Shown: in pieces, positions 44,430 through 47,400 of the stretch | How positions within the stretch are numbered: the stretch's first letter is position 1 | How the letters are laid out: the number at the start of each line of letters is the position of its first letter | Source: Mugil cephalus | Lineage: Eukaryota > Chordata > Actinopteri > Mugiliformes > Mugilidae | NCBI RefSeq assembly: GCF_022458985.1 | Contig: NC_061783.1 | Span: 16,747,913 to 16,811,912, forward strand | DNA: 64,000 bases | Direction: 5' to 3' | The notes under the pieces: generated by a model | Database searches by the model: none | The model's input: only the letters and a program-made list of their open reading frames with translations | Told to the model about the DNA's origin: nothing | Program-made: the position numbers and the translations under genes

Positions 44430-47400
44430 TCACTTCCTATTTTTCGGAGACGGCCAGTTGCCGCGTTTGTCTCCGTGGCGGTTGCCGCCTCCGTTGCCGG
44501 GCCCACCGGCGCCGCCACCGCCGGGCGGGCCGCGGGGGCCCCTGCCTCCGCCTCCGCCTCCTCCAGCGTTGACCCTCCGGTTCTGCCGCTCCATCCCGGG
44601 ACGCTGGCTCGAGAAGCTTCTTTTATTTGCTGCGGGTTCTTTGCCCGTCATCTCGCGGTCAACCACGCCTCCGCCTCCGCCGCCCCCTCCTCCCCTTCCC
44701 AGGTGGTGGTGATGGTGAGAAGCGTACGACTTCCCCCCTCCTCCTCCTCCGCCTCCGCCTCCTCCGCCCTCCCTGTCTCTGAACTCTGTGAAGTCGCTGC
44801 TCTCCGAAGCGGTTTCCCATTCCTCGTTGGCTTGGTCTGAGTTCTGGTTGGTGAAGTCAGGAGACTTGGCTCCGTGGCTGTGGGGGTGCTGGGGGTGGGT
44901 GGGACCAGCATTGCCCTGGTTGTAGTGGTGGTGGTGGTGGCTGTTTGCATTGCTAAGATGGCCTCCACCACTGTTGTTGTTTGTTAGTGTGGCGTTGTGG
45001 TTAGCATTTTGGGCATTTCCTGTAATTGGAGCAGAGTTTGGGGCTCCGTTACTGTCCTGTACTGAATTCAGGGAGGGGGACGAGGGTCTTCCTCCTCCGA
45101 TGACCCCCACTCCTCCATTGATGCGTGCGGCGTTCTCTCGCTCCTTCAGCCTCCGGAAGCGGGGCGGTTTGTCCTGCTGGTGCTGGGAACGCCCGTGACG
45201 ACGGCGTCTCGGGGGGCGTTCGAACCCACCGGGAGGGAACCCGCGGTTAGTGGGAAGGGGGAGCGCGTTTGGACCTCCAGAGTTTGACGCTGGGTTGGTG
45301 GAAGCTTGCTGAGTGGCTACGCCTCCGTTTTCACTGGAACCCAGAGCAGCGGGGGTCGCAGCAGGTAGAGACGGCTGAGGGGGGTTGCTCCCCTGATTTT
45401 GTGTTTGACTTCCTTCAGCTACCTTGTCTTTCTTTTCCCCAGCGTTTCCTCCCCGACCCAGGTCTTTGGGTCCGGCGCTTTGTGGCGGACCTTGCTGTTT
45501 CCGGGCTGAAGCTGAAGATTTGGAAGACCCACCGTGCGAGACAGAGCTAGGTCCAACCCGGTGTCCCCCAGCCGCTCCTCCAATATTGCCACTACTCCTG
45601 TAGATATTTCCTCCTCCACCTCCACCGCCCCTGCCTCTCCTGGATGGCACACCCCTGGGGGTGAAGACACGAGCCTGGGAACCTCTGGGTGGTGCAGATG
45701 AAACGTTTCCGCTGCCAGCTGTGTTGCTATTATTGGAGCCATTCTTGGTGTTGGGTTTTTCTTCTTTGTCTGAGGGACCAAGGTCACTCGCACCACTCTC
45801 ACTGCCAGTCTCTGAGCCCCTCTCCCTCCTTCTCTTGGGGATTTCTTCATACTCCGAACCCTCACTGCGGGTTTCACTACGGTTTCTGGCTCTGGCTGGG
45901 TTATGCTGAGATCGATCCTGACCGTGCCTGCCACCGACTCCCTCGCCCTTGGATTCCTGGTGGTGGGCACCACCGACCGATGACCTGTAGTCTCTGCCAC
46001 TCCTGCCTCCCATCCTACCACGGCTGCTCCCCGTGGGTCCAGCGCTGGCCGTGTAGGTGCCCCGGAAACCACGGCCACGCCCGAAGAATTCTCCCCCGCG
46101 CCCTCGACTGCCTCTGTTACCTTTGGCGGGAACTCCGTGGTGGGAGTTGCTGCCTCCTCTTTCAAAAGAGCGGTCCCTGTCCCTCCTGGACCCAGAAAAT
46201 CCCGATGAAGTTGCGTCTCCATCTTTTGGGCCTCTGCCTGGCCCGCCTCCACCTGATCGATCAGACCGTTCCCTTCCTCCGTTTCTCGGTTTGGCTGTCT
46301 GGGTTGGCTCATCTTTAGTTGGAGCAGATGTGTTATGGGAGACGGAGGAGGCTTCCTGCTTCATGGAGGTGGGCTGTCCACCATCTTGCTCTTTATCTTT
46401 TCCAAAGCTGAGGCTGGGTTTTTCTCCACCATCAACTTCCCCTCCCTCTCGCTTCATTTCCTTCAGCACTGGCTTCTTGATCGGCCCAGCCCTCTTGTTG
46501 GCATTGCCCCCTCCTGTCTGGTTGGAGGGTTTGTGATCTGATGGAGCGCTGGAGGAGTCTTCTCCGCCACGGGAGTTGTTCCCACCCCCTGCGTTGTTGG
46601 ACCTCCTGCCGTGAGAGGAGCCGCCCATATTGCTGCTTCCAGGCCGAGGGCCCCACTGGGTCTCTGTCTTGTGCTCCCTCCCTCCTCTTTGGTTCGATTT
46701 AGGATGGGGATGCTGCTGCTGTTGAGGCTGATTATGACTGCCATGCTGATGTTGAGGGGGAGGGGGGCTAGCGGTGACGGAGGAATGGGCGGTATATGCC
46801 AGACCTGTCTTCTCTGGTTTCCCATGACCGCTGCCGCTGGCGTTACCACTGTTGCCTCTTTCACCAACATTGTGCCCAACACCAGTTTCGCTCTCTCTCT
46901 GCGACTGGTGATGATGAACGGCCCCTTTGACGTTCCCGTCCTCTCTGGCAGAAGAAGACGAGGACGAGGAAGAGCAGGAAGATGAGAGGGAAGGTTGGTG
47001 GAGAGGTGGAGAAGAGTCACTCTTCTTAGAGGCTGCCTCTCCAGCCCTGTCACGGTTGTTCTCTGGCTTGTGGGGGTGGAGCGGGAAGTGAGACTGCTGA
47101 GGATGGTGGCCGTGATGGTGATGCAGGTGGGAGTTGCTCTCAACAGGGGGCAGGTCTGCACGACCGTTACGATCGTAGTGGGGATGGGGGGTACCCCATA
47201 TCTGGCCTTGCTGAGATCCTCTGGGGTGCCCTTCATCCTGGTGTGAGAAGCCATGTTGCTGGTTTCCCCTCTCACCCCCCCTCTGCTGCTGCTGCTGCTG
47301 CTGGTGGGGAGGTATTCTTGCACCCTGGTCAGTGAAGTTGCTGTAGTTTCCCCGCCCGCTGATGTAGGCATGAGGGTGGTGGCTGCCTCCCTGGGCACCA

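What the first reader, a model, noticed from the sequence alone, without database searches (positions are those of the whole stretch)
44430..44480. Prrc2a ends exactly where the mammalian protein crosses into its C-terminal region
The last exon encodes [14 protein letters not shown] and then TGA. Mammalian PRRC2A has the same WPSPKNR block, but continues with a long Pro/Ser-rich C-terminal region. I find no trace of that region in the 4 kb before csnk2b. The sixteen exons sum to a multiple of three with no break, so the gene does not look like a pseudogene. Either an ancestral splice site at KNR was lost and an intron now supplies the stop, or the only possible donor (AA|GTGATG, overlapping the stop) leads to exons placed elsewhere. 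If real, it defines a natural form made only of the N-terminal and RGG-rich parts.
Basis: partly seen in the sequence, partly recalled or inferred. Interest (0 to 1): 0.7.

Follow-up and report, generated by a model that had tools for sequence, protein, structure and literature searches.

The report
Fish Prrc2a lacking its C-terminal third
In this fish the gene for the RNA-binding protein Prrc2a stops right after its giant RNA-binding exon, where a splice site that its sister genes keep appears to have been lost, and no remnant of the last third of the protein was found, so the species probably lives with a naturally shortened form.

Summary
On the minus strand prrc2a reads as an open 16-exon gene of about 1956 codons whose 3079-nt last exon ends [11 protein letters not shown] (stop 44432-44430). 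The phase-2 exon end, where the fish's own prrc2b and prrc2c have strong donors, falls here on AATAG|GAAGTG: GT is GA, and former intron supplies the stop. No PRRC2 C-terminal exon was recognised before csnk2b, elsewhere in the window, or in 15 kb downstream of it. Genome-wide, the RG-rich exon finds three loci, but the prrc2b C-terminus finds only itself and prrc2c (12 candidates scored). Best reading: a fixed loss of about 720 residues, leaving BAT2_N plus the RNA-binding region (mouse fragments p1+p2 without p3+p4). It mirrors human PRRC2B-short, which skips exon 16 but keeps the C-terminus. Not shown: transcripts, age of the loss, spread among fish. Human PRRC2A letters were recalled, not fetched. 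A new variant of a known family, moderately interesting.

The parts
54331..54445 (-). prrc2a exon 1 of the model (start ATG 54445)
   Evidence: recalled human PRRC2A aa 1-36 at 84% identity
47717..53328 (-). prrc2a exons 2-15 of the model (53328-53151, 53019-52923, 52822-52741, 52644-52501, 52331-52090, 52008-51920, 51792-51641, 50446-50344, 50234-50045, 49841-49749, 49495 or 49513-48982, 48850-48594, 48492 or 48474-48180, 47939-47717)
   Evidence: chain restricted to GT-AG, open throughout; Pfam BAT2_N E 3.7e-70 in the first 226 residues of the model
44430..47508 (-). prrc2a last exon (exon 16), RG-rich, ends [11 protein letters not shown]
   Evidence: matches recalled human PRRC2A up to KNR
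44430..44432 (-). stop codon TGA, directly followed by a second TGA
44435..44438 (-). homologous exon boundary AATAG|GAAGTG (last exon base 44437): the dinucleotide after it is GA, not GT; phase 2 as in prrc2b and prrc2c
44432..44433 (-). weak candidate donor GAA|GTGATG overlapping the stop (3.5 bits)
39235..44429 (-). downstream flank (presumed 3' UTR and intergenic), no PRRC2 C-terminal exon recognisable; AATAAA at 43380 and 43215 are candidate poly(A) signals
36472..39234 (-). csnk2b (casein kinase II beta), same strand, next gene recognised downstream; outer limits approximate
   Evidence: Pfam CK_II_beta in 3 of 3 open stretches scanned; start codon at 39234 read by eye against a recalled protein

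Best explanation
Translation runs from exon 16 into what was intron, adds one lysine and stops at TGATGA; the old intron now serves as 3' UTR. The site AG|GAAGTGA differs from a perfect AG|GTAAGTGA by one missing T, so a one-base loss is the simplest donor-killing event (inferred). The C-terminal exons then decayed or were deleted; no copy was found elsewhere in the genome. The remaining protein should still join the translation machinery through its conserved N-terminus and bind (m6A) RNA through the RG/GRE region. It should lack whatever the C-terminal p3/p4 region does, such as the share of P3 in FXR1 binding reported for PRRC2B. Shown: the anatomy, the GA at the donor position, the open upstream gene, no recognisable C-terminal exons. 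Inferred: order of events, transcript end, function.
For: Open 16-exon model with BAT2_N. At the same exon end both paralogues have a phase-2 donor of 10.2 bits (prrc2c AGG|GTAAGT, prrc2b GAG|GTGAGG) and C-terminal exons after it; prrc2a has GA there, -6 bits. Coding score trained only on the paralogues' giant exons: above 10 in 0 of 91 windows after the prrc2a stop (maximum 2.7), against 41 of 49 in exon 16, 7 of 91 downstream of the prrc2b exon and 11 of 91 downstream of the prrc2c exon. Of 24 C-terminal pieces of prrc2b and prrc2c, 9 find the other paralogue at E up to 0.01; 0 reach E 0.05 on C14. Profiles that leave one paralogue out still find it (down to 9.2e-12 and 2.9e-13); the best C14 match has E 2.6. 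Whole genome: three loci with the RG exon, two with the C-terminus. Partner mapping: passages of PMC10287950 and PMC6318280.
Against: No RNA evidence and no other fish could be consulted. The human PRRC2A reference is recalled, not fetched. The whole-genome searches with the recalled human C-terminus (642 of its 718 residues) found nothing, not even the paralogues, and locally it found prrc2b only, so it is insensitive. The genome search with the prrc2b C-terminus scored only 12 candidates and recovered prrc2c in three pieces, two of them significant; a strongly diverged Pro/Ser-rich tail could escape. Short exons score poorly in the coding test (the csnk2b first coding exon inside the tested stretch gave no signal). 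A rare allele or an assembly error at one base cannot be excluded for the donor, though it would not explain the missing exons. That the paralogues use their donors is inferred from sequence.
Confidence: 0.82

Rival explanations
1. The C-terminus still exists: the weak donor GAA|GTGATG overlapping the stop, or another donor in exon 16, is spliced to far or strongly diverged exons that sequence comparison misses.
For: A GT exists at 44433 (3.5 bits) and another at 44506 (6.0 bits, within the range of the model's donors). The C-terminal tail is rich in Pro and Ser and the human form fails to find even prrc2c.
Against: No PRRC2 C-terminal match on C14 by tblastn pieces or held-out profiles that do detect paralogues; no third locus among the candidates genome-wide; no coding signal for 5 kb.
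Confidence: 0.1
2. The missing donor is an artefact or a private allele (assembly base error or loss-of-function variant), and the C-terminal exons are missing because of an assembly collapse or misjoin downstream.
For: One missing base separates the site from a perfect consensus donor; no reads were available.
Against: The window holds no N and lies inside a 25.6 Mb contig; csnk2b follows on the same strand, and ck2b and bat2-like share a chromosome in zebrafish; the C-terminus was not found elsewhere in the assembly. Two independent errors would be needed.
Confidence: 0.05
3. The short form is an old alternative product (intronic polyadenylation in intron 16) that became the only product once the donor was lost; in other fish both forms may coexist.
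For: In both paralogues retention of the same intron gives a stop in the codon after the one that spans the boundary (GGG TAA; AGG TGA), so the truncation needs no other change; AATAAA lies 1.05 and 1.2 kb after the stop.
Against: About two AATAAA per 3 kb are expected by chance at this base composition (own estimate, no call); no transcripts seen. This is a history compatible with the best explanation rather than a competitor for the present state.
Confidence: 0.3

Closest known systems
Mammalian PRRC2A (mouse 2157/2158 aa; PMC10039029 passages)
   Same: BAT2_N domain, colinear matches along exons 1-16, blocks such as [18 protein letters not shown] and the WPSPKNR end of the exon (human letters recalled)
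   Different: The mammalian protein goes on for about 720 residues (mouse fragments p3 1409-1720 and p4 1720-2158 of PMC6318280); the fish gene stops at KNRK
Human PRRC2B short isoform (PMC12700102 section 23)
   Same: A natural PRRC2 form made by changing the fate of exon 16
   Different: It skips exon 16 and keeps the C-terminus; the fish form keeps exon 16 and has no C-terminus, and it is built into the gene, not into alternative splicing
prrc2b (C19) and prrc2c (C6) of the same fish
   Same: Same exon-16 end, phase 2; homologous RG-rich exon
   Different: Both keep a strong donor and C-terminal exons

Membership tests
PRRC2A orthologue | BAT2 N-terminal domain (PF07001) | tested here: met
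   E 3.7e-70, positions 1-194 of 196
PRRC2A orthologue | RG/GRE-rich giant exon with the PRRC2 core blocks | tested here: met
   27 RG dipeptides in 1026 aa; core blocks shared with recalled human PRRC2A; 43% to prrc2c over 739-1002
PRRC2A orthologue | Closer to PRRC2A than to PRRC2B/C | tested here: met
   Recalled human PRRC2A exons 1-2 match C14 at 84/89%, C19 at 72/74%, C6 at 66/78%; reference recalled, no tree made
PRRC2A orthologue | MHC class III neighbourhood (CSNK2B beside it) | tested here: met
   csnk2b is the next gene recognised downstream; zebrafish bat2-like and ck2b share chromosome 19 (PMC1309616 passages)
PRRC2A orthologue | C-terminal third conserved with PRRC2B/C | tested here: not met
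   not recognised at the locus and no third copy found in the genome; hence called a truncated variant, not a typical PRRC2A
PRRC2 translation/m6A-reader activity | binds eIF3/eIF4G2 and m6A RNA | not testable with these tools
   mapped to regions kept here: PRRC2B aa 1-450, mouse Prrc2a 761-1408
Pseudogene | frameshifts, stops or broken splice sites inside the gene | tested here: not met

The most novel reading that the evidence does not exclude
A whole clade of fish has fixed a PRRC2A that is only the initiation-factor-binding N-terminus plus the RNA-binding RG region, by turning a once alternative intronic polyadenylation site after exon 16 into the only 3' end. The C-terminal functions of the family would then rest on Prrc2b and Prrc2c alone, a natural separation-of-function experiment.
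Probability: 0.45. Interest if true: 0.55.

Novelty: new variant of a known kind. Interest (0 to 1): 0.43.

Why it matters
PRRC2 proteins promote leaky scanning past upstream start codons (PMC10123092, title and start of abstract), PRRC2A reads m6A, and the function of PRRC2A outside the GRE domain is called basically unknown (PMC10039029 passage). A vertebrate that has done without the C-terminal third of PRRC2A long enough for recognisable traces to fade would show that N-terminus plus RG region can keep the gene in use. It gives a natural deletion to set beside PRRC2B-short, which lacks the opposite part.

Tried and rejected
Rejected: pseudogene (open 16-exon chain); C-terminus on the opposite strand or beyond csnk2b (both strands of the window and of C14:16733001-16753000, which adds 15 kb beyond the window start, searched; the 10 kb fetched beyond the other end, L018, was not searched for it); a second prrc2a copy elsewhere (C14, C6, C19 twice, and four weak matches at E 0.19-0.99 that I did not examine); rearrangement traces in the flank (only A/T-, CA- and G-rich repeats reported).

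A flaw found on re-checking: the first coding-score run was trained partly on prrc2a itself and on six prrc2c C-terminal pieces, three of them out of frame. It was redone with a clean training set (paralogue giant exons only); the result is the same in kind and one search is the one cited.

Led nowhere: WPSPKNR in papers (0 papers); related loci in viral contigs (none confirmed); BAT2_N over the whole genome did not complete. Paper searches that might have shown prior description of a short fish Prrc2a; no listing describes one. I opened passages or single sections of six papers only: PMC12700102, PMC10123092, PMC10287950, PMC6318280, PMC10039029, PMC1309616.

Full report
What is there. The window is part of a 635 Mb assembly of 24 contigs (C14:16747913-16811912). 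The minus strand carries prrc2a. A search restricted to GT-AG exon chains gave 16 exons from ATG 54445 to TGA 44432-44430 with no internal stop; the three best-scored chains have 1956, 1962 and 1950 codons. The N-terminus is BAT2_N (E 3.7e-70). The last exon is 3079 nt long, RG-rich (27 RG dipeptides in 1026 aa), and ends [14 protein letters not shown] followed by TGA TGA.

Why the end is abnormal. The recalled N- and C-terminal parts add up to 2157 residues, the length given for one mouse isoform (2157; the other is 2158; PMC10039029, passage), so 718 recalled residues have no counterpart here. The same genome has two paralogous loci, which I call prrc2c (C6) and prrc2b (C19) from recalled features. 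Both end the giant exon at the same place in phase 2 with strong donors (AGG|GTAAGT and GAG|GTGAGG, 10.2 bits each) and are followed by C-terminal coding stretches. In prrc2a the phase-2 boundary falls on AATAG|GAAGTGATG: the obligatory GT is GA. What follows the boundary equals a perfect GTAAGTG donor minus its T, which makes a one-base loss the simplest explanation, though a longer history is possible. In both paralogues the codon after the one spanning the boundary is a stop; here it comes one codon later. The donor frequencies used for scoring are approximate and recalled. The GT overlapping the stop scores 3.5 bits against 4.0-10.1 for the 15 donors of the model; another GT inside exon 16, at 44506, scores 6.0.

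Is the C-terminus anywhere else? Six tests were made. (1) The recalled human PRRC2A C-terminus has no filtered tblastn match in the window better than E 0.75; unfiltered it matches proline-rich stretches down to E 4.5e-5, the best opposite exon 16 with stops inside. The same filtered query finds one prrc2b exon (E 1.4e-4) and no prrc2c exon, so it is not very sensitive. (2) Of 24 stretches of the prrc2b and prrc2c C-termini, 9 find the other paralogue at E up to 0.01 and 0 reach E 0.05 on C14; the best there is E 0.095, on the plus strand, with a stop inside. (3) Profiles that leave one paralogue out still find it (down to 9.2e-12 for prrc2c and 2.9e-13 for prrc2b), while the best C14 match over four profiles has E 2.6. 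(4) A codon score trained only on the paralogues' giant exons is above zero in 2 of 91 windows between the stop and 39 kb on the minus strand (maximum 2.7) and in 3 of 89 on the plus strand (maximum 3.8). It is above 10 in 41 of 49 windows in exon 16, 21 of 116 over exons 1-15 with their introns, 7 of 91 downstream of the prrc2b exon and 11 of 91 downstream of the prrc2c exon. Short exons can escape this test; the first coding exon of csnk2b did. (5) The recalled human C-terminus over the whole genome, in two parts covering 642 of 718 residues, found nothing (best E 3.4 and 1.2), but it did not find the paralogues either, so this is weak. (6) The prrc2b C-terminal composite over the whole genome gave 14 rows: 11 on its own locus C19 and 3 on prrc2c (C6; E 1.2e-8, 5.2e-7 and 5.6), none elsewhere; 12 first-look candidates were scored. 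Three loci with the RG exon against two with a PRRC2 C-terminus is the central result.

How it most likely works. Published mapping puts eIF3 binding in PRRC2B residues 1-150, eIF4G2 binding in 1-450, RNA binding in the RG-rich fragment P2, and contributions to FXR1 binding in P2 and P3 (PMC10287950, passages). In mouse Prrc2a the RNA-binding GRE region is fragment p2, residues 761-1408, with p3 and p4 after it (PMC6318280, passages). The fish gene keeps p1 and p2 and lacks p3 and p4. I infer a protein that still joins initiation complexes and binds RNA but has lost C-terminal partners. Conserved blocks up to the last codons, WPSPKNR included, suggest that the shortened gene stays under constraint, but no rate test was possible with one genome. 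A plausible history is an intronic poly(A) product after exon 16 that became the only product when the donor died; AATAAA lies at 43380 and 43215, a number not above chance by my own estimate.

What is known. PRRC2B has a natural short isoform in human cells that skips exon 16 and keeps both termini (PMC12700102, section 23); the fish form is its mirror image and is fixed in the gene as assembled. A 2005 zebrafish survey lists bat2-like and ck2b on chromosome 19 and says that the suffix 'like' marks fragments and/or highly similar genes (PMC1309616, passages), which leaves open whether zebrafish is also short. I found no description of a short fish Prrc2a in eight paper searches, which cover open-licence papers only and of which I read mostly listings. 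Annotated fish proteomes could not be consulted, so the short form may be visible in public annotations without having been remarked on.

Limits. No transcripts, one genome, and a recalled human reference. The confidence (0.82, lowered by 0.01 on re-checking because one search scored only 12 candidates) is for the absence of a C-terminus in the gene's product, not for the functional consequences.

Noticed in passing
window 4973-5245, 10294-10551, 13560-13832 (minus strand): Ly6/uPAR-like coding stretches lie downstream of csnk2b: UPAR_LY6 matched 3 of the 4 stretches I scanned with that idea (E 5.3e-5, 0.009, 1.9e-4; all below the curated cut-off; the third also matches CD59 at 4.5e-5), the fourth (5861-6076) matched only C1_1 weakly. 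Human CSNK2B is followed by LY6 genes (recalled), while the 2005 zebrafish survey did not find the class III Ly6 genes and suggested they may be mammalian-specific; this neighbourhood suggests the arrangement may be older.
   Followed up: partly
window 62868-63116 and L018:605-937 (minus strand): BNR-repeat sialidase-like stretches (Pfam BNR_2, E 0.0021 below cut-off and 8.8e-8 above it; 2 of 5 stretches scanned) upstream of prrc2a, perhaps neu1-like; NEU1 is an MHC class III gene in human (recalled).
   Followed up: partly
window 44433-47508 (minus strand): The RG-rich exon is longer than the recalled human stretch compared with it (1026 against 617 aa) and much richer in His (63 against 3) and Asn (70 against 12): the protein lost its tail but its disordered middle has grown.
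   Followed up: partly
L011 (C6, prrc2c), about 1.5-2.0 kb: prrc2c of this fish carries a long polyglutamine run in a C-terminal coding stretch.
   Followed up: no
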